The position numbers were made by a program, and so were the translations under genes. Below, piece by piece: positions 2,834 to 30,235 of a stretch of 36,154 bases of DNA (positions within the stretch are counted from its first letter, which is position 1; the number at the start of each line of letters is the position of its first letter). The stretch lies in IMG/VR virus record IMGVR_UViG_3300044939_000023, positions 1 through 36,154 of that record. The stretch is one strand, 5' to 3'. The stretch comes from a virus. The notes under the pieces were generated by a model. It ran no database searches. It had not been told where the DNA came from and saw nothing but the letters and a program-made list of their open reading frames with translations.

Positions 2834-3039
2834 CACTTGATCAGTTGCTCCAGGCAATCCAAGCCCGCGAAGTGGGCGGCAAAATTGTTTATTATGATGA
2901 GCGATCGGATCGTTATTTCACTTGTGGCTGGCCGGAGATTTACCGCTTGTGCCATCAGGTGGAACACGTGATTCGGATTTGGCATGCGGAAGCCCAGTCG
3001 TATCTCTGCGACGAAAACGGAAATGAGATAATCGACTAA
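2830..3039 (+). CDS. Unknown small phage protein (69 aa)
   Basis: The ATG at 2830 overlaps the upstream stop as ATGA. The 69-residue product starts MTLDQLLQAIQ, has a beta-rich centre with aromatic residues (KIVYYDERSDRYFTCGW) and ends CDENGNEIID. No known motif is seen. Its TAA at 3037 is the first triplet of the 49-bp repeat (copy 1), which also contains the start codon of the following gene. Confidence 0.7.
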   Translation: MTLDQLLQAIQAREVGGKIVYYDERSDRYFTCGWPEIYRLCHQVEHVIRIWHAEAQSYLCDENGNEIID

Positions 3040-3085
3040 GTATCCCGCGACTAAAGCCGTGGATTCCCTCGCGCATTTATCATGA
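3037..3085 (+). repeat. 49-bp direct repeat with hairpin, copy 1
   Basis: This 49-bp unit runs from the TAA of one gene to the ATGA of the next and matches 5134-5182 at 42 of 49 positions by hand count. It contains an imperfect hairpin around GCGACTAAAGCCGTGG and the invariant 3' half CTCGCGCATTTATCATGA. The hairpin core resembles the subterminal palindromes of IS200/IS605-type elements, which is a similarity from general knowledge only. Confidence 0.75.
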
Positions 3086-4127: not shown

Positions 4128-4505
4128 ATGAACGAACAACGCCGAAGCACCACTGAAGCCCTGTGGCAGCACATGCACCAGGAGCACGGGTTGATCCTCA
4201 TGGAATCCCAGCTTGATGAAATCATCCGCCTCGCCACTTGCGAGGCGCTCATCAATTTGATGGAGCAGCGGGGCTTTGTTGTCGGGCGTGGCACATACGC
4301 CCACCCCAACGGAGAAACCTTGCCAACCTGGGTGGTGACTAGGCCAACTGCCCCTGATTGGTCTGGCGTCTGGTCGCCGTGGGACGAGCGGCCAGACCAT
4401 ATTGAGGATGGAGAGGCCCAGGTATTGCTTGAGGTCTGCCGCTTGGCCATCTCTAAGTGGGATGAGGAAGCGCATCTGTTTGTGCAAGAAAATGAGCCAA
4501 AATAA
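4128..4505 (+). CDS. Unknown phage protein (125 aa)
   Basis: ATG 4128 is preceded by GGAAGA at 4115-4120 with 7-nt spacing, which favours it over the in-frame GTG at 4113. The product begins MNEQRRSTTEALWQHMHQEHG, is helical at both ends and has a beta-rich, Trp-rich middle (TLPTWVVTRPTAPDWSGVWSPWDERP). I do not recognise the family. It overlaps the methyltransferase start by 14 nt, so the two are probably co-translated; it might be a partner of that enzyme, but this rests on position only. Confidence 0.65.
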   Translation: MNEQRRSTTEALWQHMHQEHGLILMESQLDEIIRLATCEALINLMEQRGFVVGRGTYAHPNGETLPTWVVTRPTAPDWSGVWSPWDERPDHIEDGEAQVLLEVCRLAISKWDEEAHLFVQENEPK

Positions 4506-5136
4506 CCCCAACCGCTACGTTACTGAATACCTAGACCTTCGCCTGATGGACTGCATGGAACTCATGGCGCAATATCCCGATGGGCATTTCGATTGGGCCA
4601 TTACTGATCCCCCCTACGGGATTGGTGTAACAGCAATGAACATGGGTGGGAGAAAGACAGTCAGACCAGACAAAAAAAGCTGGGACGACACCCCCCCGCC
4701 GCCCGAATACTTCGCCGAATTGCGGCGGGTTTCACGCCATCAAATAATTTGGGGCGCCAACCACTTTTCTCTCCCGTGTTCACGTGGGTGGATTGTATGG
4801 GACAAGGGGGAATCTATGTATGGCAGAAGTTTCTCTGAGGTGGAACTGGCATGGACATCAATGGACATGTCGGCGCGCATATTTAAGGTTACGCCCAACC
4901 AGTCATTGCGCATCCACCCAACGCAAAAACCAGTCAAGCTCTACTCTTGGCTACTATCCAACTACGCCAAGCCCGGAGACAAAATCTTAGACACACACCT
5001 CGGCAGTGGCTCCATTGCTATTGCTTGCCACTACGCCAAGTTGCACCTAACGGCCTGCGAGATTGATCCTGATTATTTCCAAGCCGCTTGCGAGAGGATC
5101 GCCAGAGAAACCTCGCAGTCAGAGTTTAACTTCTAA
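4492..5136 (+). CDS. Beta-class DNA methyltransferase (N6-adenine or N4-cytosine)
   Basis: The 214-residue enzyme transfers a methyl group from S-adenosylmethionine to an amino group of adenine or cytosine in DNA. The catalytic DPPYG motif is at residues 39-43, and HPTQKP (142-147) and the SAM-binding loop (DTHLGSGS, about 167-174) follow it. That order (motif IV before motif I) defines the beta class. MSQNN at 4492 is chosen as start because the longer frame would read through the upstream gene. No restriction partner is seen, so it is likely a solitary phage methylase used to protect phage DNA or alter regulation. A truncated relative lies at 30698-30991, and both end in QSEF-type tails. 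Confidence 0.93.
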   Translation: MSQNNPNRYVTEYLDLRLMDCMELMAQYPDGHFDWAITDPPYGIGVTAMNMGGRKTVRPDKKSWDDTPPPPEYFAELRRVSRHQIIWGANHFSLPCSRGWIVWDKGESMYGRSFSEVELAWTSMDMSARIFKVTPNQSLRIHPTQKPVKLYSWLLSNYAKPGDKILDTHLGSGSIAIACHYAKLHLTACEIDPDYFQAACERIARETSQSEFNF

Positions 5137-5182
5137 GTATCCCACGGCTTTAGCCGTGGGTCTCCTCGCGCATTTATCATGA
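5134..5182 (+). repeat. 49-bp direct repeat with hairpin, copy 2
   Basis: This copy starts at the methyltransferase TAA and carries a perfect 9-bp hairpin (CCCACGGCT 5141-5149 with AGCCGTGGG 5152-5160). The stem may fold with a larger loop by opening the inner pairs. It sits between the convergent ends of the methyltransferase and the minus-strand 82-aa gene. With copy 1 it brackets 2.05 kb holding RHH paralog 2, three unknown genes and the methyltransferase. Confidence 0.75.
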
Positions 5183-5198
5183 CACAACAGAAAGGAAC

Positions 5199-5447
5199 TC
5201 AACCCAAGCCGCCCCGGCTATGCTTGGCGAGTATCCGTTCGGCCTCAACCTGGTTCTCAATCAGCCGCCCCAGCGTGGCGCAATGTTGGCTAGCCTGGGG
5301 CCAGTCGCGCTGGCGGATCGCGCCCAGCAGTAGGGCGCTGCGGCTGGCCATCTTGGCCTTGTTTGCCTCAATGAGACGGTTGGCGGCCGTCAGGACTAGG
5401 CGGCGGAGGTTGCGGACTTGTTTTTGTTTCTTTTGGATTTGGTTCAT
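5199..5447 (-). CDS. Unknown helical protein (82 aa), reversed in the left module
   Basis: The frame reads MNQIQKKQKQVRNLRRLVLTAANRLIEANKAKMASRSALLLGAIRQ and on to a Gly-rich end; it is basic and almost wholly helical, possibly a coiled coil. Its composition is natural, while the overlapping plus-strand frame at 5179-5568 is Trp/Arg/Ser-rich and looks like a shadow. The ATG at 5447 abuts a perfect 7-bp inverted repeat (5448-5466). The only in-frame alternative is TTG 5519, which would add 24 residues encoded across the palindrome. There is no obvious Shine-Dalgarno for either start. Function unknown. Confidence 0.5.
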   Translation of the reverse strand: MNQIQKKQKQVRNLRRLVLTAANRLIEANKAKMASRSALLLGAIRQRDWPQASQHCATLGRLIENQVEAERILAKHSRGGLG

Positions 5448-5466
5448 GCGTCCGATTACCGGACGC
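5448..5466 (-). promoter_or_regulatory. Palindrome abutting the start of the 82-aa gene
   Basis: GCGTCCG (5448-5454) and CGGACGC (5460-5466) form a perfect 7-bp inverted repeat with a 5-nt spacer, immediately upstream of ATG 5447. It could be an operator or an mRNA hairpin occupying the ribosome site. Confidence 0.45.
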
Positions 5467-5533
5467 CCATTGGATTTGTCGGCAGATTTTTCATCACCAA
5501 TCCTATGCGGTAAGCGCAAAGGAATTGGCCCTC

Positions 5534-5565
5534 AAAAAAACGGGGCACGGCGGCGAACCGTGCCC
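5534..5565 (-). terminator. Strong intrinsic terminator (minus strand)
   Basis: GGGCACGG/CCGTGCCC (5543-5550, 5558-5565) is a perfect 8-bp GC-rich stem with a 7-nt loop, followed on the minus strand by seven T residues (5540-5534). Confidence 0.85.
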
Positions 5566-5597
5566 TAATGCACCTTCCGCATGTGGCGGATGTGCTT
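5534..5597 (-). ncRNA. Candidate small RNA (minus strand, about 64 nt)
   Basis: A promoter TTGACT (5626-5631) with 16-bp spacing to TATTAA (5604-5609) predicts a start near 5597. The transcript would contain a small hairpin (TCCGC/GCGGA) and then end at an intrinsic terminator at 5534-5565. No credible frame lies between. It is mirrored by a plus-strand unit at 5741-5806. Confidence 0.4.
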
Positions 5598-5603
5598 ATT
5601 TGT

Positions 5604-5631
5604 TTAATAGCCAGCCCGTTCCCAAAGTCAA
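5604..5631 (-). promoter_or_regulatory. Promoter for the minus-strand candidate small RNA
   Basis: TTGACT at 5631-5626 and TATTAA at 5609-5604 are separated by 16 bp on the minus strand. No protein gene starts downstream before the terminator. Confidence 0.5.
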
Positions 5632-5706
5632 GCAATCGCGATAATGCGTCCTATTTTCGCACATTTTTAAGCCGCCGAGTGCCAGGCATGATAGCCGAAA
5701 TACAGG

Positions 5707-5734
5707 TTGCATTCCTTTGCCATCACACTATGAT
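5707..5734 (+). promoter_or_regulatory. Promoter for the plus-strand candidate small RNA
   Basis: TTGCAT (5707-5712) and TATGAT (5729-5734) are 16 bp apart, predicting a start near 5741. No protein gene begins before the terminator at 5773-5806. Confidence 0.5.
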
Positions 5735-5740
5735 GAGATC

Positions 5741-5806
5741 ACCCCCCCCCTATGGCTTCGGCTACGGGGCGCAAGGCCGTCCATTAGTGGGCGGCCTTTG
5801 CTTTTG
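5741..5806 (+). ncRNA. Candidate small RNA with UUCG hairpin (plus strand, about 66 nt)
   Basis: The predicted transcript begins A followed by nine C residues (5742-5750), folds into a hairpin capped by C-UUCG-G (5747-5769) and ends in an 11-bp terminator hairpin. The UUCG cap is one of the most stable RNA tetraloops. No reading frame of use lies inside. The whole unit has the size and layout of a phage small RNA, but there is no expression evidence. Confidence 0.4.
5773..5806 (+). terminator. Intrinsic terminator (plus strand)
   Basis: AAGGCCGTCCA (5773-5783) pairs with TGGGCGGCCTT (5788-5798) with one wobble and a TTAG loop, followed by TGCTTTT. Confidence 0.75.
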
Positions 5807-5865
5807 CGGCAGATAAGCGATACGCCAGATGACAAAAAGCCCTGCAAATCAATAAGCGTATTTGT

Positions 5866-5894
5866 TTGACAAGCCAGACGATCAAATTTAAGCC
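5866..5894 (+). promoter_or_regulatory. Possible promoter of the dUTPase gene
   Basis: A consensus TTGACA lies at 5866-5871, but the -10 region (TTTAAG near 5887-5892) is poor. A TAGAAT at 5902-5907 is an alternative -10 without a matching -35. Confidence 0.35.
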
Positions 5895-5920
5895 AGTCCA
5901 ATAGAATCAAAACGCAGAAT

Positions 5921-6298
5921 ATGAACCAAGACAAACTAGAACAAATATTCCAACTGCAAGACCAACTTAACCGGCGCATTGGCATCAATGCGGCTGGCCT
6001 TACCGATGAGGAGCGGGTCCAGTGGATCTTGAACTACACCCGCGCCATGTCCCAGGAGATTGCCGAACTAGTCGATTCTGTGCCATGGAAATGGTGGGCT
6101 AAATACCAGACCTTCGATGTTCAAAACGCCCGTGTGGAAGTGGTGGACCTGTTCCACTTTCTCGTCTCTATTGCCCAAGTTTTGGGCATGGGAGCAGATG
6201 ACGTTTATCAAGCCTACGTTAAGAAAAACCAAGTTAACCACCAGCGGCAAGACAGCGGCTATGCTGTCAAAGACAATGCCGATTCCAAACATATCTGA
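5921..6298 (+). CDS. Dimeric dUTPase (all-alpha dUTPase_2 family)
   Basis: The 125-residue protein hydrolyses dUTP to dUMP and pyrophosphate, keeping uracil out of phage DNA and feeding dTMP synthesis. It belongs to the all-alpha NTP-pyrophosphatase fold, unrelated to the trimeric enzyme. Family signatures are clear: QDQLNRRIGI near residue 13, the metal-binding EIAELVDSVPWKWW (about 46-59), VEVVDLFHFLVSI (about 73-85), and KKNQVNHQRQDSGY near the end. It lies after the two small RNA units and is followed by a small membrane protein gene with a 10-nt gap, probably in one transcript. Confidence 0.93.
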   Translation: MNQDKLEQIFQLQDQLNRRIGINAAGLTDEERVQWILNYTRAMSQEIAELVDSVPWKWWAKYQTFDVQNARVEVVDLFHFLVSIAQVLGMGADDVYQAYVKKNQVNHQRQDSGYAVKDNADSKHI

Positions 6299-6309
6299 GG
6301 AGACATGTC

Positions 6310-6555
6310 ATGAAAAAATACCTAGAGCCTGCTGTCTTTGGCGCATTGATTGGAACCGCTTACTATGATCTTGATTGGGTTATTATCACAGTTGGCATTT
6401 TGCTGGTGTTCTTAATCGCCTTTATTCTTGCGCTTGCAGCTTTTTCCCTATTGACAGACCTTCTCGCTGAAGCTGTGTTTTTAGCTGATACAAACGATTC
6501 AACTGGTCGCGCTTCTCTTCGGGCGTCATCTCGCGGCTTGCCCAAATCTGATTGA
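6310..6555 (+). CDS. Small membrane protein (81 aa)
   Basis: GAGGAG precedes ATG 6310 with good spacing. Residues about 6-50 are strongly hydrophobic (VFGALIGTAYYDLDWVIITVGILLVFLIAFILALAAFSLL), enough for one or two membrane spans, followed by a hydrophilic tail. The last 134 bp run head-on into the 3' end of the giant minus-strand gene, so the tail (residues about 38-81) is encoded on both strands. That shared part makes the C-terminus less certain as a selected sequence. Function unknown; a role in membrane effects on the host is possible. Confidence 0.6.
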   Translation: MKKYLEPAVFGALIGTAYYDLDWVIITVGILLVFLIAFILALAAFSLLTDLLAEAVFLADTNDSTGRASLRASSRGLPKSD

Positions 6556-9500
6556 TCAACTTGTTGATATTTGTCAGATCTCTCTCATATTTGCCAAGCA
6601 CCCTGCTGCGCTCAAGCACCATAGGGTCCGCTTTCAAGAGACGATTGGTTTCTTCTAAGTCCATGGCCTCAGCAACCTGGCGCACGCGACGGGCAAGTGC
6701 CTGAGTTTCATCGGCCATCTTGTAGAATAAGTCAGGGTATTTAGTTCTTACATTTTGTGGGTTCTTGATGAATCGGCCAACACCCAAAACTCGATTTTCC
6801 CACCACTCCTGCTTAGGGGGCGGCGGCACGTCAGCAAAGTTCTTGTAGATAGCATCTGCAGCCATCATGGCGTAGGTGCCCATTGTCCCGAAATACCCTT
6901 CGACAAAATGCTGCACTTTTAGCGGACTAACTCCAAGCTTCTCGCCAATGCCTCTTGCTGTGAAGGGCGTGGTTGGATAATACCTTGCTTCCGGTGGCAA
7001 GGCCCGCACGTTGGCCGGCTCAATTTCACGCTCGAAGTAAGACTTCCAGCCGCCAGGGCCAGCATGCAATTCAAGGATCGGCTTGACGAGCTGTGGTGTT
7101 GGGTTAAGGCGCAGCATGTTGGTTGCTAGGTATCCTAAGCGGTAGGTTAACTCCCTCATATCCGCCTTGCCAAACTCACCCTCTGCCTTCTTCATGAAGG
7201 CTACCGTCAGGCGCTCTGGCACTGTTCCCAACATGGTTCCAATCTCAAATGGCTTGGGAATGAGGATCATGGTTCGATCCGCGTCTCCCTTATTGCCTGT
7301 GAGATAAACCCAATAGCGGTCCTTAATGTCGTCAGGCAGCTTGTCGTAGTCATCATCATCCCAGTTCCGCAATGCGAGCAATGTGGAGATTGCAAAAAGC
7401 ATGGAGCCGCGCGTCCAAAATGTTCTCGTATTCATAGCGCGGCCCATGCGGATTAAGCCCTGCATCCCCGCATTAAAGAATGGGGCAGTCTGCGCCAAAA
7501 ACTGAATCATCTTGCTACTACCAGAAAGCGAGAAGTCCGTGGTTGCCTCACGGTAAGCCCACGCCGCCTCCACTAAGTCGCCTGTCCTCTTGAGAGTGTT
7601 TAGGGCCACCTGCGTGCGGGTGGCACTTTCTGTGGCTTGGCCAAAAGTCTCGGCGGCTTGAAGCGTAGCGTTGCCAGCACGCCGCAAGGCCTCAAGAGCC
7701 TGCCAAAGTGCCTGCGGGTTGTCAGCCTTGATGATTCTAGAAATCCTTGGGCGCGTGACAGAAGTAATGCTTTCCCTAGTTACGCCTTCTTGGCGGAAAG
7801 TTGAAGGGTCGCCGGCCCCTGCCAAGAAAATGCGGTCTAGGTCGCTAATTTCGCCATCCCGCCCCATAAGCTTTTTTACCACTTGGCGGTTGCTGGCCCA
7901 CGCCAAAGCCCCACGCATTGTTTCTATAATAGGGACAGCCATATCCTTGTTTTGTAGCCACGATGCCATTGTGTCGCGCATGGCGTTTGCCCCCACAAAC
8001 TCCAAAGTAATCGTAATGCTGCTCTGGAAAAGTCTCCGCGCAAAGCGAGCCAGCGTCATAAAAGGATTCCCAGCCCCTATGGCCCCTCGGCTCATAGCCT
8101 CAAAAGAATCCCAAACCAGGTCATCCACAATGCGGCGATACTGAACCCTGCCGTCCTTCATAAAGGAAACAATGTCGCTCCCCTTTTGTGGACGCCCAAT
8201 AGCATAGATGTTCACCCAAACAGAGGGGTCAATATATTGCGAAAGCTCCTCCGGCACTCCCTGTTTCTCAAGCTCCCGCATGATGGCCCAGTTGGAGATG
8301 GCCACTTTTTCTTTTTGAGAAACAGGGACCATGAACTGCGGACCATCGGGCGCCATTTGTTCATTGATTTCATCCTTGCGGATTGCCAAAGCCTGCTCTG
8401 CCTGAACCCTTTGCCGCTCATAGTCTGGCTCACTAATCTCGCCATTCGCCAGCCTCTTCTTGAGGTCAGATTGAATCTTGGCAAATTCCGCCTCAGCCTC
8501 CTTAATTGCGGCATCCCTCTTCGCCTTAGCTTCCGCACTCTGCTTGGCGTTGATGGCGTCACTCATAGCCACTGCGCGGAGCATGACTATGTTTTTAATG
8601 CCCGCCACCATCATGTGGACCATGTTGCGCTCGATGTTTTCGTATAGATCATTCAACGGCTCTGTGCCCCCAAGGATTCGACGGATGCCGCTGCGCTGGT
8701 CTGCAAAGCCTCTCTTGGATGTCGGCGGCCCATACAACTCGCCTGCCATCGGATCAATTGCCCGATAGAACGGAACATACTGTGTGTGCAGCTTTTCAAG
8801 GTGATCGCGCAGCTCCGGCGAAACTAGTCCCGTGGCCACCGCAAAATCCATGACGCCACGCACGTTGGCCTGGTAATCGGCAAATGCTTCCTCAAAGCCT
8901 TCACGCTTCATGGCCAAAAGCGCCGCAATCTCAGCCTTGCTGAAAAGGGTTTCGCGGCGCGGGATTTCAAGCCGCGTCATGGCAGCCAAAGCAACAAGCT
9001 CTGCATCGGTATGCAGCTTGGCATCTTCTGCTTTCAGCCCAATAATCTCAAGGTGCTGATCGCGACGAAGCTTTTGCATGTCATTGAAAATATTGGCTGC
9101 GCGAGAACTAGATGCCAAAAGTGAATTAAGCTCGGCTTCAGCAATGGCCTTGAGTTCGCTGGCCCTCCGCCCGGCCATATATCCCATGAAGTCTCTTAGC
9201 CCATCCTCACCATATTTGTCGCGGATGTCCTTAAATATCATGGCAACACCACGCACCCGGTTATCCACCTGGAAAGCTCCGTCCTTCATCACGGGGATGC
9301 CAAGCCACAAGGCTTCGTGCGCCATGGAATAAGCATCAGTGGCAACTTGCGCAAACTTGGCTGCACTCTCTTTCCCAGAAAGAAGCTCGCGTCCGCGCCC
9401 ACGCACAATCTGGTTGAAAGTCTTTTCCATCTCGTGCAGGGCATACTGCTTGTTAAATGCCTTCTGAACCACAAGCCACTTGATGCGGTTCCAGCCAGCA

Positions 9501-12500
9501 TCTTTAATGGCCTCTATATTGGCGCGCAAGCTGTCGAAGGCTTCTTCGACGTGTGTTTTCTGCCGCCGCATCTTGCCCAAGGCGTATTCTTTGGGGTTAG
9601 TGCGTCCTCTTGTGGCCCTTCTTGCTGCGTCAAGCCTCGGTAGAATTGTAATGGGGATGTCCAGAGGAATGATTTGCCCTTTGTATTTCCTGAAGTTGTC
9701 TGGCTTTACGTCGGCCAAGGCAACGCCATCAGATTGGCGAAACCACGCCCTTGCCGTCCCCACAGGCTCAAAGCCCTCGCTTTTTAGCCAATCAGAAATC
9801 TCCTGAATGGTAGGCTCATCCCCAGGCACAAAATCCTGCTTGACCACCAAGGCAATGGTCCCATCTGGCCGCTCGGCAGCGCCCTCAAACGTGACTTCCG
9901 GCGCAACACCGCCAAAGACATGGTTGAATGTGTCCCACCGCTCCAGATATTCCGAAGGCGTCGCATTCCCAGTAACAACCCTAGGGATGCCGTTGATGGT
10001 CGCTACTGGGACTGCCCGATAGCCTGAAGGCACCCCTTGGCTATTGCTGGTGAACTTGTAAACTTCCCGCCCACGAATCTGGACAACGTGCTCAAACCCA
10101 CTCCCCGAAGGCTTCTTGGGCCAAGGCAATTTCTTGATTCGCCCATCCTCCATCATCTGGCGAATGGCATATTCACCCAAAATTATTTGCGCTTCATGGT
10201 CGCCTTCATCAGCGCCAAGCTCTTTTGAAATTCTGGCGAGTTCTCGGGACAGCTTCGCAAAAGGCGTTTCACTTCCTCTTGCCGCCTCTGGTGTTCCGGG
10301 TGTTCCAGATATGTCTGTCCTTGCTTCAGTTTCAGCAGTTTTGTTTTCATTTTTTGCTTTTCCTTTGCGCCCACGCGAGGCGCGGATGTTGGGGCTTTCC
10401 GAAAATATCCCAGTATTTGGATCGCCTGGCAACGGCCCTTTTTGCCCACCCTCAAAAATTGCTTCATCTCCAGCCAGCTTAATATTGTTGGAGTAAAAAA
10501 CGCCCCAAGTTGGCACATCCCCAAATTTGGGGAATATTTCCTCGCTCATTTTAATGGCGTCATAGCCCATTTCTCTGAGGATCGTAGAAAACCCAGGATT
10601 TTCGACCAAGCCCCAAACATTTTTAATCTTGCTCCAAGCATCTTCAATTGTGGCGTTTGGATTATTTTGTTGTTCTGCGCGTAACAATATTTTAGCTTGC
10701 AACTCAATCAGGTCCGCAGTTTTCTCAAACTCATCCTTTGTGGTCTGGCTGTATTTGTCAGCGGCCCCACTTCTTCCGTAATCAATGACCGCCTTAATCT
10801 CGTTGTAATTCTTGGCGTCCAAAAACTTCCTAGCGCGCATGAACAATGGCAGGGAAACGATTGGCGAATTGAGCTGACTTTGCGTTTGATTGGAGATGAC
10901 TCTCCCGTGCCGCTCATCTTCAGCTAAGAAGTAAAGGCCATTATTATCTGGCGCAAGAGACTTTAGCTCTGGCACCGTGGTTGAATGATAAAAAACCTTT
11001 GGCTCGCCAGTCAGTTGGTCAAGAATAACATTCCCCTCACCAATACGCCAGTCACCGCCAGCCCACTCCATAAAGTTCGGGGTGCGAACAGCCCGCCACT
11101 GAGATTCCGTAAGCAAGCTTGGACCACCGTAAGGATTAAGCAGGCGTCCATTGGCTACCCATGTATAATATGCCGTCGTATTGCCTTGGAAAACAGGATG
11201 ATCTTGTGCGACAAGGCCCGCCTCATCACGGACAAGAGGGACTTCTAAAAGCTGCTTGCGGGCATCCCATGCGGCATCCACGAACTCATTTGCCGTCATA
11301 TTCTTTGAGTTCTTCATCCGCAAGGAAGTATCGCCAAATGCGTTCTGAATGACGGCCATGCGATTCTTCAGCACGCCCAGAATTGCACGCAATCTAGGGC
11401 TTTTATTTTCCATTACTTTTCTAAATGCGCCATGAAATTCCCACAGGATTTTGGCAAGGCCATCATTTAGCTCCTCAATGCTCATCTCCCCATAAAGATC
11501 GGACAGCCCCGGTATGCTGGGTATATCTAAGCCCTTGCGCAAAAACATCTTTTTGACGTTATCCGGCAACAAGGCAAACACTTCCTTGTCCGACCATGCA
11601 AGTTCTGATTTGCTTTTAGGTTCGCCATTAGACTTATACCCAAGCGCGCCACTCATGCTAACGCGATAAGGCACAGGGACGTATGAGAATGAATCATCAA
11701 CAATGATGTTGCTCAAATTATCCCCGCCACCATCAAGGTTCTGCAGAAGCAGGTCCACCCAATACCCACTGCGAAGCGCAGCTTTCAAGGAATCGAGCTT
11801 AAATTTTGCCTCGCTTTCTGGAAGTTGCTCCAAGGATTTAATGTATTCCCCTAATGTTGGGCCTTCAATGTATTGTTTCTCAATCCATTCTGCGCGCACC
11901 AACTCATTATCAAACCACTCCGTATCACTGATTGGCCTTACAATGTTCCATTCGCCGCTTATATTTGAGCCGTATTTGCTAATAAGTTTTACTGATGGGG
12001 CAAGCACCCCAATATCTTTCACGTCATTAAAAAGTGTTTGCCACAAGGCATGAATTTTGTGGGCAAAAAATTCTTCAAGCCGTTGTTCTAGGCCGCGTCC
12101 GCGTTTAAGGACAACTTTTGTGCCATATTTATTTATCGCCAAAATGGCCCCATTGTCGCCTTGTAGCTTGGCAATGAATTTGTATCCAACCGCCTCAAGA
12201 TCGGCAAATTTGTCCATCAGCTCTTTGTCAGAAACTCTACCACGAGAGGCCCGTCTTTGAGCGGATGGCAGCGCCATTCTTTCCTGAAGCGATTGGCGAG
12301 ACATCTCCTCGGCCAACTTAGGGGCGTTCTCCACGGCTTTCAAAGCCTCATCAATGGCGGCAAGACGTTCGCGTAGCTCAGGGAAGTTGCCCCGTATTTT
12401 GGCCATCCAAGTTTTCAGGAGATTGGCCAAGCGATAGAAAAACTGCTTCAGAGTAGGCATTCCAGCCAGATCAAAAGCCTCTGGCGCAGAAAATTGGCCA

Positions 12501-15500
12501 CGAGAATGCGCGCTCCATTCGGCGGCAAACTCAGGGAAGAAATTGTCAATCCAAAGGACGTCACCCACGCTGCCGCTATCGGCATTGGCAAAGCCAATAA
12601 TCTCGCCAGACGAGTTGCGTAATGTCAAAACACGGGATGCCTGAAGGTATCTGGCGGCGAATTGCTCCGCCTTGGTTATGCCCATTTCATCAATGAGCCT
12701 ACGACCATGTTCGGCCACAAACTCCTCATAAGACATCTCAGTGCCAGACTCCTCCCAAAGCTTCATCATCACCTGGTCGTGCGCAAGGTGATGCATTTCT
12801 TCGGCAAGAACGGCCCTAACGTATTCCTCGAAGGCTTTTTCTTTTTCCTTGGCCCCCATGTTGCCAAGTTCATTAAAGGTTTCAGCCAAGCGGAACAGGT
12901 TGGCAAAAACGACGTTCGACTCCCCAACCTCGACAAACATGGCGGCAGGATCAGTGGGATCGTTAAGCCAGGCAATATCAATGCCTTCTGGCAGCAAAAC
13001 TCTGGCAAGGCGCTGGATGACGTTGCGCACCTTGAGTTGCGTGTCATTGGCCATGCTCCATTGCAACCCTTCGATCTTCCTCCTGCCTTTACTGGCAAAG
13101 CGGGCAAGCTCATCACGCCTTTCTTTCCATTCCTGAAGAATGTCAGCAACAAAAGGCTGCTGCTCCCTGTTGGTCTCAATGAACTCCCAAATCGCCTGCA
13201 TGTCAGACTGGCGAAGCTCGTCGTTGACTAAATTGATGAGCGCATTCTTGATTGTTGCAGGAATAGAGGAATTATTGATTTTCTCTTTAGTCTGCGCTGC
13301 CACCTTCTCTAGCTCGTCATTAATCTCTTGACGAATCTTTGCCCTTTCTGGGCTTTCGGGAGTGGCAATGGAATTGTCCAGCGTTTCGGCCCCACTTTCT
13401 ATTGGCTCGCCATCCTCTGTGAACTGTTGAATGGGCGGCTCGTTAATGTCATCGCCTTCAGTCCCAACTTCTTCTTCACCAACGCCCAAGCCATCTTCAA
13501 CATTGGTATCCCCATCGCTTTGATTGGATGCTTTTTCTACAGGCTGGGCATCTAGGCTAATCTTGGGCGCATTGGCTTCACTAGCAGCATACTTGCGCAG
13601 TGTTGGCTTCATGTAGTTCACCCACGCAAATCCGCGTCCCTGCTCGTTCTTTGCTTCCAATGAGCCGTATTGCTCGATCCAAAGCAAGGCTCGGCGCGCG
13701 GCCTGGTAGGCTGCATCATCAATGGCCTGCAACTTGGTTGCCTCATCAAACCACGTGAACGTAGTGGGGTTTGATGCAATGCTGTCGGCAAATTCACGCG
13801 CTTTTAAGAGAAATGCCACAAGCTCTTGCTTTTGCGCTTCGGCAAGCTTGATAGTTCTCTGCCCTTTGCCATGTTGTTTAATTTTCCCATCGAGAATGTC
13901 GGCAATCTTGGATGTTGCGGCCTTTTCGTTGGCCTGCTTTGTTTTCCTGGGGCTGCGCTCGCCCCTCGCCTTGCTTGGGGATGGGGTCTCAATTTCGGGT
14001 GTCAGTGGCTTGGGCGCCTGTTTCTTCTTATCGACAGCTTGCTCTTTCGGTCCCGCGACTGGCGTGGTTACGCTTAATCCAGTTCTTGGCTGGGGGCGTT
14101 CTTCTGTTGCTTGTTGTGCTTGCCCTTGCGTTTCCTGGCTGGCGTCACTCGCCACCGGCACCCCTCTTCGTGCAACTCCTCGATCTCCTCTGGAGTCAGA
14201 TTCTTGAGGTTTCTGAGTTTGTTGAGGTAATGATGACGTTCCGGCTTGCTCATTGGTCTCGACTCTTTCTGCTTGTGAAACTGGTTGCTGGGGTTCCTGC
14301 TGATTTGAGGCTGCTGCTTCGGCGGCAGCCTGAGATTGTGGGGCTCGGAAAATTTTTTGTATTGCCGGGGCTGGGGACCAATCCCCACCACGAATCCTCT
14401 TTAGGCCATCCACAGGCTTTTCGCCCCAGTTTTGGGGGTTAGCCATCCGCCCCTTCGATTTGTCATACACCCATCCATTTTTAAGCAAGTCTTGGACAGC
14501 CGACATAACTTCATCTGTGTTATACACGCCAAACATCCGCATTCTTAAATCAGGAGCATATTCAGAAGCTATGGCGTCGGCTAAGGTGCCCAAAATTTTA
14601 TCCAAATCATTCGTAGTGACCCACCCAGTCATGGGTGGCTTGGGCTTTTGAGCTTGTGGTTGTTGAGCCGGAGAATGAGATTGGGGGGCCAATGGAGCGG
14701 GTGCAGCAGTGCTAGCTATCCCCTCATCATTTTGCTCGGATCGTGGTTGAGGTGCTGGGGCCTGTTCTTCTGCTGGTTTAGCAACTGGGGAAGATTCTTG
14801 TGCAACAGGTTGAGGTGGTGCAACAGGTCGTGCCGCCGCGCTTTGTTTTTCTTCTTTTGCTTCTTGAGGGCTTTGCGTTGCCGACGGTTCTTGTGGCACA
14901 ACGGGTTGCGCTGCTTCTGAGGCATCCGCCTCTTCTTCTGCAATAGGCGCAACTAAGCCCAAGTCGGCATTGGTTGCCATCTCTTGCTTCTTCTGATCTT
15001 TAGCCTGAATTGGCTGGGAGATGGCTTCTTGTTGGTTGGCCTGCGCACCTTGTTCTTCCGCCTTTTGCTGAAAGGCGGCTTGCGTAGCCGGACCTACCGC
15101 TGAGGCCGCTTGGGCCGCCTCACTGGCCGCACGGCGCTTGGCTGAAGCCTTCTCCTCAGCCGCCGCCCAGTCGGGGTTGTTGGACAAAATTTCATAGCGG
15201 GCAGTCCCCATCTTCAAGATAAACTCTTGATCGCTCCAGCCCGCCTCTTCTTCTGAACGGCGACGCAGTTCTTCTTCAAGGCTTTTGTCTAGTTCCGATT
15301 GAGTGAAATTCCCGCTAGCGCTTACCTCAATTTGACGCGCTGCCGCGATCCGGGCCAAGTCATCAACACTTAATTCCCTTAATGCTGCGACACGCTTGAG
15401 CGGAGAAAGCGATTCAAGAGATTCGACGGTGACGCCAGACGACTGCGCCAACTTAGACTGGCGCACCATGTCTTTTGAAATTTGAAATTGGAACTCGGCT

Positions 15501-16888
15501 GGAAGGTCTTTGAGTTGGACGGGATTGCCATTTTTATCGACAGCCACTACGGTTTCGGCGTTTGCATTTGCCCAAAGGTAAGCAGCTACGTTATCATCCG
15601 AAGTGGTTAATGCTTTGTATTGCTTGCGCCAATCCCTCTCCGACCGCATCTGATTAAGACCAGAGGCCAATCCAGAAAGTGCCCCACCAACCACAAAGCT
15701 TTGGCCAACATCATCGGCAATTGGTTTGCCCAATACAAGGTTTTGCCCCATTTGCGAAATGGCTTCGCTAGTGCCCCCCGCAAGGCCCTGCGCCCCAATC
15801 TCAGCAAAAGGACGCACCGCGCCGCGCACGCCTTTGGCTAGCCTTGCAAACGGTAGTAGTGACTCCGCCAACTCCGATCCAAACTCAATGCTGGTCGTAG
15901 CCTTTGCCGCTATATCGGCATAAGAAATGGCATCATTTAGATTGGCGCCATCCTGGTATTTTCGCTGCAGCGCCTCATCCCATCCGCTGTTGTAGCTCCG
16001 TGCTACCTGCACGGTAAGGTAAGACGGCATAGTGACAATGGCGGCAGGCGGGACAACATACCCAACAAACATGGGGGTCATGACGCCAGCCTCATTGCCA
16101 AGTGAGTATAATGTCTCTGCGCCCTTCCCAAATCTCTGCTGCGGGCGGCCAAATGCGTTGATTTGAAGTTCCTGGATTTTTTGTTCGGCAAGCCGCCTTT
16201 TTTCTTCTTCATTGCCGAACGCACGCTGTTGAAGCCCATTCAACAACTGCGGCAGATCGCCCCAAGTGCCCAAGCCTTGGCTTAACCCAACACCAAAGGC
16301 ATCATACCACTTCATTTCCCCAAAAGTCTTGTCGATGTTTTGTTGTGTCTTTTGGGTGCTTTCGTAATTGGCCTGGTAAAACTTGGAAAGCGAAGCGAAA
16401 TCGCTGTCTGGCAAGACGCCAGCCCTCCGGGCCTGATCCAATGCCTTAAATGGATCGTCTCCTATAACACGGAAGCGCTTGACAACACTGTTCCCCCCTT
16501 TGCTTTCTTCGCCTGGGGGAAGAGGCGTATATTGGAACAATAGCTTTTCCTTGCCATTAAAGATGGAAGAGGCCACAGCATAAGCAGGCGACAGACTGTC
16601 AGCGTCGTAAATCAGTTTGCCGCCACTTGTGGGAATCCCATTCTTATAAGCCTCAAACATGCCCTTGGGGTCTTGCCCGCTTGCCGCTGAATTAACAAGG
16701 TCAAGGGCAGCAGAACGCGCCCTAAATTCGCCCAGCCGAAGTTGGTAATCTCCTCCGGCGCTATTTAGTCTCTCGCCCTGGCCGTTGGACAAGGCCGTTG
16801 GCTTAAGCCAATCCGGCATAGGCGTAGCCATGCTGCTGCCATTATCCTCGCTGTCTAAAAAATTGTTGGGAATTTCTTGTTGTTTCAT
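6422..16888 (-). CDS. Giant polyvalent ejection-type protein (3488 aa) with kinase-like and ADP-ribosyltransferase-like regions
   Basis: This gene fills 29% of the window. Seen in order: a hydrophilic N-terminus, a Gly/Ala-rich hydrophobic segment (about 265-420) that could insert in membranes, a Gln/Pro/Ala-rich linker (about 590-960) with a small folded insert (about 750-835), a helical region with EEMHHLAHD (1363-1371) that recalls a zincin helix but lacks the first His, a kinase-like region (about 1550-1860; K1595, D1719, D1723, N1724), an ADP-ribosyltransferase-like region (about 1940-2135; EPKVFYHST with H1968, GLYFLAEDE, ILREMGYDAI), a second kinase-like region (about 2205-2415; DVKPDNF from D2393, LD at D2410), and a helical C-terminus with FFNAGMQGL at 3137, like LPD38. 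Such layouts define the 'polyvalent proteins' described by Iyer, Aravind and colleagues. Inference: it is packaged, ejected with the DNA and modifies host targets. Start is coupled to the upstream gene by ATGA. Confidence 0.85.
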   Translation of the reverse strand: MKQQEIPNNFLDSEDNGSSMATPMPDWLKPTALSNGQGERLNSAGGDYQLRLGEFRARSAALDLVNSAASGQDPKGMFEAYKNGIPTSGGKLIYDADSLSPAYAVASSIFNGKEKLLFQYTPLPPGEESKGGNSVVKRFRVIGDDPFKALDQARRAGVLPDSDFASLSKFYQANYESTQKTQQNIDKTFGEMKWYDAFGVGLSQGLGTWGDLPQLLNGLQQRAFGNEEEKRRLAEQKIQELQINAFGRPQQRFGKGAETLYSLGNEAGVMTPMFVGYVVPPAAIVTMPSYLTVQVARSYNSGWDEALQRKYQDGANLNDAISYADIAAKATTSIEFGSELAESLLPFARLAKGVRGAVRPFAEIGAQGLAGGTSEAISQMGQNLVLGKPIADDVGQSFVVGGALSGLASGLNQMRSERDWRKQYKALTTSDDNVAAYLWANANAETVVAVDKNGNPVQLKDLPAEFQFQISKDMVRQSKLAQSSGVTVESLESLSPLKRVAALRELSVDDLARIAAARQIEVSASGNFTQSELDKSLEEELRRRSEEEAGWSDQEFILKMGTARYEILSNNPDWAAAEEKASAKRRAASEAAQAASAVGPATQAAFQQKAEEQGAQANQQEAISQPIQAKDQKKQEMATNADLGLVAPIAEEEADASEAAQPVVPQEPSATQSPQEAKEEKQSAAARPVAPPQPVAQESSPVAKPAEEQAPAPQPRSEQNDEGIASTAAPAPLAPQSHSPAQQPQAQKPKPPMTGWVTTNDLDKILGTLADAIASEYAPDLRMRMFGVYNTDEVMSAVQDLLKNGWVYDKSKGRMANPQNWGEKPVDGLKRIRGGDWSPAPAIQKIFRAPQSQAAAEAAASNQQEPQQPVSQAERVETNEQAGTSSLPQQTQKPQESDSRGDRGVARRGVPVASDASQETQGQAQQATEERPQPRTGLSVTTPVAGPKEQAVDKKKQAPKPLTPEIETPSPSKARGERSPRKTKQANEKAATSKIADILDGKIKQHGKGQRTIKLAEAQKQELVAFLLKAREFADSIASNPTTFTWFDEATKLQAIDDAAYQAARRALLWIEQYGSLEAKNEQGRGFAWVNYMKPTLRKYAASEANAPKISLDAQPVEKASNQSDGDTNVEDGLGVGEEEVGTEGDDINEPPIQQFTEDGEPIESGAETLDNSIATPESPERAKIRQEINDELEKVAAQTKEKINNSSIPATIKNALINLVNDELRQSDMQAIWEFIETNREQQPFVADILQEWKERRDELARFASKGRRKIEGLQWSMANDTQLKVRNVIQRLARVLLPEGIDIAWLNDPTDPAAMFVEVGESNVVFANLFRLAETFNELGNMGAKEKEKAFEEYVRAVLAEEMHHLAHDQVMMKLWEESGTEMSYEEFVAEHGRRLIDEMGITKAEQFAARYLQASRVLTLRNSSGEIIGFANADSGSVGDVLWIDNFFPEFAAEWSAHSRGQFSAPEAFDLAGMPTLKQFFYRLANLLKTWMAKIRGNFPELRERLAAIDEALKAVENAPKLAEEMSRQSLQERMALPSAQRRASRGRVSDKELMDKFADLEAVGYKFIAKLQGDNGAILAINKYGTKVVLKRGRGLEQRLEEFFAHKIHALWQTLFNDVKDIGVLAPSVKLISKYGSNISGEWNIVRPISDTEWFDNELVRAEWIEKQYIEGPTLGEYIKSLEQLPESEAKFKLDSLKAALRSGYWVDLLLQNLDGGGDNLSNIIVDDSFSYVPVPYRVSMSGALGYKSNGEPKSKSELAWSDKEVFALLPDNVKKMFLRKGLDIPSIPGLSDLYGEMSIEELNDGLAKILWEFHGAFRKVMENKSPRLRAILGVLKNRMAVIQNAFGDTSLRMKNSKNMTANEFVDAAWDARKQLLEVPLVRDEAGLVAQDHPVFQGNTTAYYTWVANGRLLNPYGGPSLLTESQWRAVRTPNFMEWAGGDWRIGEGNVILDQLTGEPKVFYHSTTVPELKSLAPDNNGLYFLAEDERHGRVISNQTQSQLNSPIVSLPLFMRARKFLDAKNYNEIKAVIDYGRSGAADKYSQTTKDEFEKTADLIELQAKILLRAEQQNNPNATIEDAWSKIKNVWGLVENPGFSTILREMGYDAIKMSEEIFPKFGDVPTWGVFYSNNIKLAGDEAIFEGGQKGPLPGDPNTGIFSESPNIRASRGRKGKAKNENKTAETEARTDISGTPGTPEAARGSETPFAKLSRELARISKELGADEGDHEAQIILGEYAIRQMMEDGRIKKLPWPKKPSGSGFEHVVQIRGREVYKFTSNSQGVPSGYRAVPVATINGIPRVVTGNATPSEYLERWDTFNHVFGGVAPEVTFEGAAERPDGTIALVVKQDFVPGDEPTIQEISDWLKSEGFEPVGTARAWFRQSDGVALADVKPDNFRKYKGQIIPLDIPITILPRLDAARRATRGRTNPKEYALGKMRRQKTHVEEAFDSLRANIEAIKDAGWNRIKWLVVQKAFNKQYALHEMEKTFNQIVRGRGRELLSGKESAAKFAQVATDAYSMAHEALWLGIPVMKDGAFQVDNRVRGVAMIFKDIRDKYGEDGLRDFMGYMAGRRASELKAIAEAELNSLLASSSRAANIFNDMQKLRRDQHLEIIGLKAEDAKLHTDAELVALAAMTRLEIPRRETLFSKAEIAALLAMKREGFEEAFADYQANVRGVMDFAVATGLVSPELRDHLEKLHTQYVPFYRAIDPMAGELYGPPTSKRGFADQRSGIRRILGGTEPLNDLYENIERNMVHMMVAGIKNIVMLRAVAMSDAINAKQSAEAKAKRDAAIKEAEAEFAKIQSDLKKRLANGEISEPDYERQRVQAEQALAIRKDEINEQMAPDGPQFMVPVSQKEKVAISNWAIMRELEKQGVPEELSQYIDPSVWVNIYAIGRPQKGSDIVSFMKDGRVQYRRIVDDLVWDSFEAMSRGAIGAGNPFMTLARFARRLFQSSITITLEFVGANAMRDTMASWLQNKDMAVPIIETMRGALAWASNRQVVKKLMGRDGEISDLDRIFLAGAGDPSTFRQEGVTRESITSVTRPRISRIIKADNPQALWQALEALRRAGNATLQAAETFGQATESATRTQVALNTLKRTGDLVEAAWAYREATTDFSLSGSSKMIQFLAQTAPFFNAGMQGLIRMGRAMNTRTFWTRGSMLFAISTLLALRNWDDDDYDKLPDDIKDRYWVYLTGNKGDADRTMILIPKPFEIGTMLGTVPERLTVAFMKKAEGEFGKADMRELTYRLGYLATNMLRLNPTPQLVKPILELHAGPGGWKSYFEREIEPANVRALPPEARYYPTTPFTARGIGEKLGVSPLKVQHFVEGYFGTMGTYAMMAADAIYKNFADVPPPPKQEWWENRVLGVGRFIKNPQNVRTKYPDLFYKMADETQALARRVRQVAEAMDLEETNRLLKADPMVLERSRVLGKYERDLTNINKLINQIWASREMTPEEKRDQLNRLYQLKTQLQREGLSIGKKLQAQE

Positions 16889-18432
16889 CGAATTGAACTG
16901 ACAATGGCGTTAAATTCGTTCCAATCAATCTGATTTTCGTCAAATGGCCATCTTGACACTGGCCTGATGGCCGGCCCCTTGGCCATGCCCAGGCCGCCAA
17001 GCCCTGTGACATTTTTGATGGTTTGGGCAACGTCGAATTGGGATTCGGCCATCTTCTCGTCCAAAGACTTGCTCATGGACAATGGCGGGGCAACCGACTT
17101 CATGAATCGCTTGGCCGCTTCGATGCGCTCTTGGGCTGGCATTTTTTGAAGCTCTCTGAATTGCTCTGGTGTAGTGTTAGCACGGATAGCTTCCGCCAAG
17201 GCGGAGGCTGCTGCAATCTTGCCTCCCACAAAAAAGGCATGGTTGTTTTTCCCGCGCTCCAGCAAGTCTCTTGCCTGTTGGAATTTGGAGGCCAAGGAAT
17301 CCGATGAGATTTCCGTGGCCATTGGACTTTCTTCAGGGATAAATTTTGGTCCTGCTGGCCTGCTAAGCCCACGAATAACTTGGCCATTGGAGGCCTCCTC
17401 ATCTGATAAAGGCTCGTCCTGCAACGGCTGGTTTACCGTCTGTGACACCTCCACCGATGGGGATGCGCTTGGTTGAGAGTCTGCACCAGCTTTGTTTTGT
17501 GTAGGAATTGGTTGCCCGGTAAGTTCGTCAATGCGATTATAGCCCAATATTTCCTTTCTCTTGTTTAGGTCTGAATGCAGCTTGATCCTCCTATCCTCAA
17601 GCTCCATGATGTTTTTGTTGATAGCATTGATTCTTTCATCCTTGAACAGTGAAGATGCCGCTGGGCCAATGTTCGGATTTTTCTCCTGCATTTCCCTTTG
17701 AATCGCATCGCGCTGTTGGTAATACTTTTTTAGTTGGGCGTTGGTAGCCCTCAAATCTTCTTCGAGATTGTAGTGCTCAAGCTGTGTATCGGCCTTCTTT
17801 TGCGCCATCAGCATTTGCCGTTGCCGCTGTTCCTTCTCTAACTCTTGGGCGTATCTGATGGCCGTAGTGTCGTCTAGCTTGTCAACATCATTCACCCCAT
17901 TTTGGGAAAGATACTCTCGTGCAGCAATACCGGCTTCGGCCTTCTGGTTGCTCAAACGAAGAGCCTGCCTTTGGCTCTCCTCGTTGAGCAGGCCATGTTT
18001 CCGCGATATTTTCATGTCGGCCAACTTCTGAGTAAGATGGGGTGGCAAATTTGAGGGGACTTGGATAGAGTCAATGTCACTAAGCGTCGCATTGGAAACG
18101 CTAATGATAAAGTCATTGACAATTGGCTGATACTTAAGCTCCTCAGCCACCTTTTGAGCGGCCAATTTCTGAGATTCAATTTGGCTGCGGCGGTATTCTG
18201 TTTCCGCCTCAATTTCTGCCATCCTCAGCGGCAGCATAAGCTCTTCTAGCTGTTGGCGGCGCTTTTGTTCTTCCATCTGAAGCATCATTTGACGCTCTTG
18301 CATGGAAAGACGGCGGTTGTCGTCAAAAGCACCCTTGTATCCCAAAACCTGTCTTGTTATAAGCGCTGGGTCAGGCATATCAAACTGCCTGTCATTCCCA
18401 ATCATGCTGACGAGTTGCTGGCCTAGCGACAT
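16885..18432 (-). CDS. Coiled-coil ejection/internal virion protein (515 aa)
   Basis: Residues about 40-290 are charged and heptad-like (MQERQMMLQMEEQKRRQQLEELMLPLRMAEIEAETEYRRSQ is 41 residues of continuous helix, cited here by its parts near residue 45-85), giving a long coiled coil. A Pro/Ser-rich linker (about 315-370) leads to a helical C-terminus. No enzyme motif is visible. A good AGGAGA site precedes ATG 18432 and the stop overlaps the giant gene as ATGA. By position between the tail genes and the giant protein, and by composition, it resembles internal virion proteins that assemble with the giant ejection protein, as T7 gp14-gp16 do. That assignment is inference. Confidence 0.7.
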   Translation of the reverse strand: MSLGQQLVSMIGNDRQFDMPDPALITRQVLGYKGAFDDNRRLSMQERQMMLQMEEQKRRQQLEELMLPLRMAEIEAETEYRRSQIESQKLAAQKVAEELKYQPIVNDFIISVSNATLSDIDSIQVPSNLPPHLTQKLADMKISRKHGLLNEESQRQALRLSNQKAEAGIAAREYLSQNGVNDVDKLDDTTAIRYAQELEKEQRQRQMLMAQKKADTQLEHYNLEEDLRATNAQLKKYYQQRDAIQREMQEKNPNIGPAASSLFKDERINAINKNIMELEDRRIKLHSDLNKRKEILGYNRIDELTGQPIPTQNKAGADSQPSASPSVEVSQTVNQPLQDEPLSDEEASNGQVIRGLSRPAGPKFIPEESPMATEISSDSLASKFQQARDLLERGKNNHAFFVGGKIAAASALAEAIRANTTPEQFRELQKMPAQERIEAAKRFMKSVAPPLSMSKSLDEKMAESQFDVAQTIKNVTGLGGLGMAKGPAIRPVSRWPFDENQIDWNEFNAIVSSIR

Positions 18433-18444
18433 GTTTTCTGTCTC

Positions 18445-19317
18445 CTAGTAATAGTAGGGCAAGGCGCGAGGTGCCGTTGGGTTAAACATGTTCCCCAAAA
18501 AGTTAGAGCCAAGTCCTAGCGGGCTGCCACCAAAGGCGCTCGGTGCCTGGCCAAAATAGCCATAAGAAGAGCCTAGCCCAATCCCGCCAACCCCACCCAC
18601 ATTGTTGCCCCAAAATCTAGGAGTTGGCGTCAAGTAAGACATGGCAGCACCAGCAGCCATTTGCGGTATCTGCTGCACAACCCCCAAAGAGTTATTCAAA
18701 AAGTTGAATGGCGTGCTTACTATGTTGCCTATGGTGCTTTCAAGCAGCCTGCTGAAACCCGATTTCCGCTGGCTGTTGGCAAAATCAATTTGCTTGTTTT
18801 GGTTGCGGATGTTGAGGTTGGTCAAGGCCTGATTGTCACGTCGCTGCATGATGGTCCCAGGATCATAAATCATGTTCTGCGCAATGGCGGGGGTCAGTGC
18901 CTGGCTCCAATTAAGCTCGTTGCCAAGGCGCGCAAATCCCTGGCCCATCAAATCCATACTTGTTAAGCCAAGGTCACGGGAGGTTAAATTTCTCCCCATC
19001 AGGCTGTCTGGGCCATAACCACCACTGATCGAGCGCGCCACGCTTCCACGGATGATGGCATCACGGACATCTTTGGGAATCTCGCCTCGCAGATAGGAGT
19101 CGGTAGTTTGCCCAGCCCGATTGAGACGATCCAAAAGTCCAGGAATTGCGCTATCTAGGCTTTCACGATAGCCAGTGTTCAGCTTGTTTGCAAAGTCCTG
19201 AAGCTTCGGCTGAAGCTCGCCCTGCTTGAGATATTCTTCCAGGTATTTATTAACTTCAGGAAGTTTTAACTCCTCAAGCCTTGGGGCCGCTTTGGGTTTC
19301 TTGAAAAAGCCAAACAT
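18445..19317 (-). CDS. Structural/ejection protein with Gly-rich tail (290 aa)
   Basis: The N-terminal two thirds are helical and hydrophilic, starting MFGFFKKPKAAPRLEELKLP. From about residue 200 the sequence becomes rich in Gly, Ser, Asn, Phe and Tyr (WGNNVGGVGGIGLGSSYGYFG) and ends ALPYYY, typical of flexible virion segments. The segment about 190-235 is moderately hydrophobic. An AAGGA site precedes ATG 19317. It is the first of three consecutive ejection-type genes after the tail adaptor. I do not recognise a named family. Confidence 0.65.
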   Translation of the reverse strand: MFGFFKKPKAAPRLEELKLPEVNKYLEEYLKQGELQPKLQDFANKLNTGYRESLDSAIPGLLDRLNRAGQTTDSYLRGEIPKDVRDAIIRGSVARSISGGYGPDSLMGRNLTSRDLGLTSMDLMGQGFARLGNELNWSQALTPAIAQNMIYDPGTIMQRRDNQALTNLNIRNQNKQIDFANSQRKSGFSRLLESTIGNIVSTPFNFLNNSLGVVQQIPQMAAGAAMSYLTPTPRFWGNNVGGVGGIGLGSSYGYFGQAPSAFGGSPLGLGSNFLGNMFNPTAPRALPYYY

Positions 19318-19331
19318 AGATTGTTTCCTTT

Positions 19332-20342: not shown

Positions 20343-20345
20343 GGC

Positions 20346-21038: not shown

Positions 21039-21044
21039 AGCGGC

Positions 21045-21073
21045 ATTGTGCTGCCTCTATCAATCAGTGTCAA
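21045..21073 (-). promoter_or_regulatory. Promoter of the collar gene, predicted leaderless
   Basis: TTGACA (21073-21068), 17-bp spacer, CACAAT (21050-21045) on the minus strand. Only 6 nt separate the -10 from ATG 21038, so transcription should start at the A of the start codon. No Shine-Dalgarno is present. Confidence 0.65.
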
Positions 21074-21077
21074 GAAA

Positions 21078-21102
21078 GTTGCAAATGCAAAGCATTTGCA
21101 AC
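21078..21102 (-). promoter_or_regulatory. Perfect palindrome upstream of the collar promoter
   Basis: GTTGCAAATGC and GCATTTGCAAC form a perfect 11-bp inverted repeat with a 3-nt spacer, ending 4 bp from the -35 box. Its centre is near -52, a position used by activators. In RNA form, with CTTTCTT after it, it could also be a weak terminator for the 285-aa gene. Confidence 0.55.
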
Positions 21103-21118
21103 AATTCTGTGCTAGATG

Positions 21119-21976: not shown

Positions 21977-21988
21977 AGCCTTTCCATT

Positions 21989-24999: not shown

Positions 25000-25006
25000 A
25001 GCGTAG

Positions 25007-25034
25007 AGTATCCACAAATTGAGCTATGCGTCAA
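25007..25034 (-). promoter_or_regulatory. Promoter of the fibre/structural genes, predicted leaderless
   Basis: TTGACG (25034-25029), 16-bp spacer, GATACT (25012-25007), then 7 nt to ATG 24999. It separates the replication genes from the structural genes. A 7-bp inverted repeat (GCATAGC/GCTATGC, 24996-25002 and 25023-25029) frames the -10 and includes the start codon. Confidence 0.55.
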
Positions 25035-25040
25035 ACTTTC

Positions 25041-30231: not shown

Positions 30232-30235
30232 ATAA

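What the first reader, a model, noticed from the sequence alone, without database searches (positions are those of the whole stretch)
5448..5920. Two divergent small RNA units of equal size in one intergenic region
Minus unit: TTGACT-16-TATTAA, predicted start near 5597, small hairpin, strong terminator at 5565-5534. Plus unit: TTGCAT-16-TATGAT, predicted start 5741, C-tract, UUCG-capped hairpin, 11-bp terminator hairpin ending near 5806. Each would give a structured RNA of about 65 nt with no useful reading frame. A matched pair of promoter-hairpin-terminator units is not explained by the neighbouring genes.
Basis: seen in the sequence. Interest (0 to 1): 0.72.

Follow-up and report, generated by a model that had tools for sequence, protein, structure and literature searches.

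The report
Two back-to-back phage transcription terminators
A bacterial virus carries its two strongest transcription stop signals, one for each direction, in the small gap where its two oppositely transcribed gene blocks collide; they most likely keep the blocks apart, and the idea that each is a tiny RNA gene is possible but unproven.

Summary
The hairpins and terminators are real. With a perfect stem of at least 9 bp (7 or more G-C pairs) and a T-rich tail, only three sites exist in the 59-kb parent phage genome. Two are in this 473-bp gap, one per strand; the third is inside a gene. None of 1000 shuffles of the gap gave one per strand.

The promoters are weaker. Neither passes the consensus scan. 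By weight matrix the plus site is decent (about 1% of 70-nt stretches score as well) and the minus site ordinary (6-10%).

The gap lies where a rightward 19-kb block and a leftward 40-kb block converge. Each terminator is the first strong one met by polymerase running off the matching block. In the two diverged relatives found, homology stops at the minus terminator's T-tract, so neither unit is conserved in sequence. Both relatives have their own hairpins in the same place, and one has a promoter-hairpin-terminator unit of similar size. Pairing with phage gene starts is no better than shuffled.

Best reading: boundary terminators between converging blocks. A matched pair of small RNAs or attenuated leaders remains possible.

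The parts
5534..5565 (-). Leftward intrinsic terminator: 9-bp stem GGGCACGGT/GCCGTGCCC, 5-nt loop, CG spacer, T7 tract
   Evidence: one of three such sites in the 59-kb genome; hairpin -16.9 kcal/mol
5570..5595 (.). Second hairpin next to the leftward terminator (GCAC.TCCGC/GCGGA..GTGC). 5' hairpin of the putative minus RNA; read on the + strand it is followed by TTATTTGTTT and looks like a weak rightward terminator
   Evidence: -12.7 to -13.9 kcal/mol
5604..5631 (-). Promoter-like site TTGACT-16-TATTAA; its -10 box overlaps the T-rich tail that follows the 5570-5595 hairpin on the + strand
   Evidence: Weight matrix 8.3, genome rank 118; P 0.06-0.10 per 70 nt; not in consensus scan
5707..5734 (+). 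Promoter-like site TTGCAT-16-TATGAT
   Evidence: Weight matrix 10.4, genome rank 26; P about 0.011-0.013 per 70 nt; not in consensus scan
5742..5769 (+). C9 tract and UUCG-capped hairpin at the start of the putative plus RNA
   Evidence: -10.4 kcal/mol, z 0.05, not better than shuffles
5773..5806 (+). Rightward intrinsic terminator: 11-bp stem, 4-nt loop, tail TGCTTTTG
   Evidence: hairpin -18.8 kcal/mol
5199..5447 (-). Small gene downstream of the leftward terminator (82 aa, two long helices); homologues in L015 (91%) and L016 (79%) where the start lies further upstream
   Evidence: Codon bias +0.30/codon; AlphaFold pLDDT 91.5
5448..5466 (-). Leader hairpin GCGTCCGgtaatCGGACGC just before the ATG, kept in L016 with one both-sided change and one wobble
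   Evidence: only three sequences, and coding in the relatives
5921..6298 (+). dUTPase/MazG-like pyrophosphohydrolase gene downstream of the rightward terminator
   Evidence: PHROG 173 E 1.5e-21, PHROG 18650
6422..16888 (-). 3488-aa polyvalent protein gene, last large gene of the leftward block, convergent with the rightward block
4459..5136 (+). DNA methyltransferase gene, last gene of the rightward block before the gap
   Evidence: PHROG 67 E 5e-44; PADLOC MTase_II

Best explanation
The gap is a transcription boundary. The phage has two converging blocks: rightward (19 kb, ending with the methyltransferase gene at window 5136) and leftward (40 kb, ending with the 3488-aa gene at 6422). Neither block has a strong terminator directly after its last gene. 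Rightward polymerase first meets a strong terminator at 5773-5806, leftward polymerase at 5565-5534. The two RNAs would therefore overlap, and each would run antisense through one small accessory gene: the rightward RNA through the 5447-5199 gene, the leftward RNA through the dUTPase gene. The terminators stop each block from running into the other and bound this antisense overlap, as in an excludon or non-contiguous operon. Shown: the terminators, their rarity, their strand and place, and hairpins at the corresponding site in two relatives. Inferred: that they terminate in vivo, the early/late timing, and the antisense effect.
For: In the stringent class only three terminators exist in 59 kb; the two outside coding sequence are both here, one per strand. 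The block map shows convergence next to the gap, and each terminator points the way its block is transcribed. Relatives L015 and L016 have the same convergence next to a homologue of the small gene and carry their own hairpins with T-rich tails between the late block and that gene (L015 4626-4655 and 4749-4781; L016 4464-4511 and 4780-4826), although the sequence is unrelated. Conserved place without conserved sequence fits a generic stop signal better than a small RNA with a specific target. The promoter-like sites are borderline. Terminators at tail-to-tail junctions (PMC1852404) and overlapping convergent transcripts including phage examples (PMC7154746) are established.
Against: Each terminator lies upstream of a gene in its own direction, with a promoter-like site about 39 nt before it; that order is unusual for a plain boundary. 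The plus promoter is better than about 99% of 70-nt stretches, and L015 shows a similar promoter-hairpin-terminator order with a good promoter. More distant relatives rarely have such terminators after the homologous large gene (2 of 71 within 1.2 kb). The L016 hairpins are less clean than the others and not in the stringent class on the leftward strand.
Confidence: 0.56

Rival explanations
1. Two small regulatory RNA genes: each promoter makes a terminated RNA of about 65 nt that acts in trans on phage or host RNA.
For: Compact folds (z -4.1 and -2.2); plus promoter P about 0.01; a similarly sized unit (TTGACG-16-TATGCT, hairpin, 15-bp terminator, about 73 nt) at the corresponding place in L015, whose promoter ranks first or second of about 20,400 positions in that locus.
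Against: Minus promoter ordinary; no sequence conservation in the two diverged relatives; no Rfam match; best pairing with 45 phage gene starts no better than shuffled RNAs; the plus 5' hairpin is at shuffle level.
Confidence: 0.2
2. Attenuated leaders: each promoter drives the gene downstream of its terminator (the 82-aa gene; dUTPase), and read-through or antitermination sets expression. The short RNA is the aborted leader.
For: Order promoter-hairpin-terminator-gene on both sides, and in L015 upstream of the homologous gene; a conserved leader hairpin sits just before the 82-aa gene's ATG; no better promoter lies between terminator and gene (best is TTGACA-17-TAAGCC before dUTPase, 8.55).
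Against: No convincing alternative antiterminator pairing was seen by eye (only 4-5 bp options); L016 has no comparable clean unit; dUTPase relatives lie in unrelated contexts without it.
Confidence: 0.17
3. The minus unit is only a double hairpin for bidirectional termination: the 5570-5595 hairpin is the stem of a weak rightward terminator whose T-rich tail (TTATTTGTTT) mimics a -10 box on the other strand. This is a variant of the best explanation in which the minus promoter does not exist.
For: Tail and -10 box are the same bases (5596-5609); the tool lists this hairpin as a rightward terminator-like site.
Against: The tail is weak, and -35 and -10 are spaced as in a promoter.
Confidence: 0.3

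Closest known systems
Intrinsic terminators at tail-to-tail (convergent) gene junctions, as catalogued by TransTermHP (PMC1852404)
   Same: GC-rich stem, short loop, T-rich tail, placed where two blocks converge, one per strand
   Different: Each terminator lies beyond a small gene of the opposite block, so the predicted transcripts overlap
Excludon / non-contiguous operon (PMC7154746)
   Same: Predicted overlapping, mutually antisense convergent transcripts, with genes of one strand embedded in the other strand's RNA
   Different: No transcript data here; the mutual repression is inferred only
Phage small RNAs such as lambda OOP (reviewed in PMC12197685)
   Same: Short promoter-to-terminator unit in a phage regulatory region (OOP details beyond the review from general knowledge)
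   Different: OOP is antisense to a known target (cII); no target or transcript is shown here
Paired two-hairpin put RNAs of phage HK022 (from general knowledge, a lead only)
   Same: Two divergent leaders of about 65 nt, each with two hairpins
   Different: put RNAs suppress termination and do not end in T tracts; here the second hairpin is itself a terminator

Membership tests
Intrinsic (rho-independent) terminator | Stable GC-rich hairpin followed directly by a T-rich tract | tested here: met
Intrinsic (rho-independent) terminator | Releases RNA in vivo | not testable with these tools
   No transcript data
Convergent boundary terminator pair | One terminator per strand, between converging transcription blocks | tested here: met
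   Block map. A small gene of the opposite block lies between each block's last gene and its terminator
Phage small RNA gene | Own promoter | tested here: inconclusive
   plus site good, minus site ordinary; weight matrix is for E. coli sigma70 and the host is unknown
Phage small RNA gene | Conserved sequence or structure in relatives | tested here: not met
   homology with L015 and L016 ends at the T tract; only two diverged relatives available
Phage small RNA gene | Complementarity to targets above chance | tested here: not met
   phage gene starts only; host unknown
Phage small RNA gene | Discrete transcript | not testable with these tools
   No RNA data
Known Rfam RNA family | Covariance model match at gathering score | tested here: not met
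Transcription attenuator | Mutually exclusive antiterminator structure | tested here: inconclusive
   Only 4-5 bp alternatives by eye; no alternative structure in the predicted folds

The most novel reading that the evidence does not exclude
A phage group carries short promoter-hairpin-terminator units of fixed size (65-73 nt) at the junction of its two gene blocks. They are maintained by architecture rather than sequence (G001 twice, L015 once) and make abundant short RNAs that regulate the block switch or act as decoys.
Probability: 0.14. Interest if true: 0.5.

Novelty: new member of a known kind. Interest (0 to 1): 0.24.

Why it matters
If the boundary reading is right, it fixes where the two transcription blocks of an uncultured phage end and predicts mutual antisense over two small genes, one of them a dUTPase. 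If the RNAs are made, they would be phage small RNAs whose placement, but not sequence, is retained.

Tried and rejected
Rfam on the window and whole parent genome: nothing. tRNA/tmRNA in the window: none. Coding explanation of the gap: the 82-aa frame 5568-5816 and the antisense frame 5179-5568 have no coding bias and no PHROG match. Similar DNA in phage records: none relevant. Exact pattern scan for the minus unit: only the parent genome. dUTPase relatives L002-L004: unrelated context. Profile search for the small gene in bacterial genomes: nothing. Host from TnpB: only a 30% match in Streptomyces, uninformative. Type III toxin-antitoxin (RNA antitoxin plus terminator plus toxin): no tandem repeats in the gap and no toxin-like gene (predicted two-helix hairpin). 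Replication origin or terminus by GC skew: no clear signal at the gap. Retron ncRNA: the phage has a retron-type RT, but about 9 kb away.

Full report
What the window is. The window is 99.96% identical over 31,173 bases, plus 100% over a further 5,051, to IMGVR_UViG_3300044995_000110 (G001, 59,104 bases). That contig's ends share 70 bases, so it looks like a complete circular map of about 59,034 bp. It encodes a podovirus-like phage with a 3488-aa polyvalent protein, a DnaB-like helicase, a terminase-like protein and a methyltransferase. The long frames form two blocks: rightward (g 15006-34229) and leftward (g 14940 through the origin of the map to 34353), with g = window + 27931. They converge at window 6298-6422, just right of the gap 5448-5920. 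On the left of the gap is a small minus-strand gene (5447-5199) with coding bias; on the right a dUTPase-like plus-strand gene (5921-6298). The gap itself shows no coding bias in any frame.

The observation. The two terminators are the best two in the first 20 kb. Requiring a perfect stem of at least 9 pairs with at least 7 G-C and a T-rich tail, the whole genome has three: these two and one inside a coding gene near window 28460. Of 1000 dinucleotide shuffles of the gap, 2 contain any such site and none has one on each strand. The predicted RNAs fold well. The minus unit's first hairpin is unusual for its length (3% of random genome stretches); the plus unit's first hairpin is not. Read on the plus strand, the minus unit's first hairpin is followed by TTATTTGTTT and resembles a weak rightward terminator; its tail supplies the bases of the proposed minus -10 box.

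The promoters. The scan tool does not list them, and its count of promoter-like sites is at shuffle level. With a sigma70 weight matrix (frequencies entered from memory, for E. coli), the plus site scores 10.4 (rank 26 of 118,000) and the minus site 8.3 (rank 118). Such scores occur by chance in about 1.1-1.3% and 6-10% of 70-nt stretches. Clear promoters elsewhere in the genome score higher, for example TTGAAA-18-TATAAT at g 19552 (15.9) and TTGACA-17-TATATT at window 30450 (15.3). The host is unknown, so the matrix may not fit.

Relatives. Protein search with the small minus gene found two diverged relatives, L015 (91%) and L016 (79%); a profile search found no more, in viral or bacterial genomes. 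In both the gene again sits between the end of the polyvalent-protein block and a convergent block homologous to the window's rightward genes. DNA homology runs through the gene and its leader and stops at window 5526-5533, at the T tract of the minus terminator. Beyond that, similarity to either relative is at shuffle level, while L015 and L016 resemble each other further upstream. So the unit is not conserved in sequence. But L015 has in the same place and direction a strong terminator (4626-4655) and then TTGACG-16-TATGCT, a hairpin and a 15-bp terminator (4749-4781), giving an RNA of about 73 nt; that promoter ranks first or second of about 20,400 positions in its locus, depending on the background used. 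L016 has T-tailed hairpins at 4464-4511 and 4780-4826. Among 71 more distant loci with the polyvalent protein, strong late-direction terminators within 1.2 kb are rare (2 of 71; 0 of 68 in the gene-internal control).

Interpretation. The simplest account is a boundary: two converging blocks need one terminator each, and the genome's only two stringent non-coding terminators are found here on the correct strands. Because each block runs past a small gene of the other strand before it meets its terminator, overlapping antisense transcripts are predicted, as described for excludons and non-contiguous operons, including in phages (PMC7154746); terminators in tail-to-tail regions are standard (PMC1852404). 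What this leaves unexplained is the promoter-like site about 39 nt before each terminator and the similar arrangement in L015 (43 nt). I therefore keep real probability on short transcription units, either small RNAs or attenuated leaders. A test of pairing between the two RNAs and 45 phage gene starts gave nothing above shuffles, and no Rfam family matched.

Verdict. Observation partly confirmed (terminators yes, promoters borderline). The small-RNA interpretation is not excluded but not needed. Ordinary to mildly interesting.

Noticed in passing
L011:14038-14829 (-), about 3 kb beyond the left end of the window in the parent genome G001: Retron-type reverse transcriptase (NAxxH and YADD motifs; NCBIfam retron St85 RT E 2.9e-41 but below cutoff; PADLOC retron RT models) encoded by a phage; its msr-msd and any partner were not looked for.
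   Followed up: partly
G001 g 19050-19600 (window orientation); L015 4200-4420; L016 4430-4830: Arrays of palindromic or iteron-like repeats: TGATGCATATGCATCA and AGGGACAAATGTCCCTA in G001, TTTCGTGACG in L015, ACTTTTGTTC in L016. Each genome has its own repeat, possibly origin or repressor sites. In G001 they precede the strongest sigma70-like promoter.
   Followed up: no
G001 g 16797-17260: A 464-nt non-coding, G-rich, apparently structured gap right after the terminase-like gene; no Rfam match.
   Followed up: no
window 3036-3085 and 5133-5182: A 50-bp repeat (86% identical) with a hairpin (CCCACGGCTTTAGCCGTGGG in the second copy) spanning a stop codon and the next ATG.
   Followed up: partly
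window 5505-5447 (-) against L015 4940-5001: The small gene's start ATGAAAAAATC in L015 and L016 has lost one A in the window, so the upstream start is out of frame and translation probably begins at the ATG at 5447.
   Followed up: yes
L015:5251-5505 (-), L016:5246-5500 (-): An 84-aa frame that by eye resembles the N-terminal part of XRE antitoxins paired with ImmA/IrrE proteins; no NCBIfam match. In the window a methyltransferase gene sits in this place.
   Followed up: partly
window 30998-32287 (-): TnpB-like transposon protein in the phage; only a distant (30%) relative in the bacterial genome collection.
   Followed up: partly
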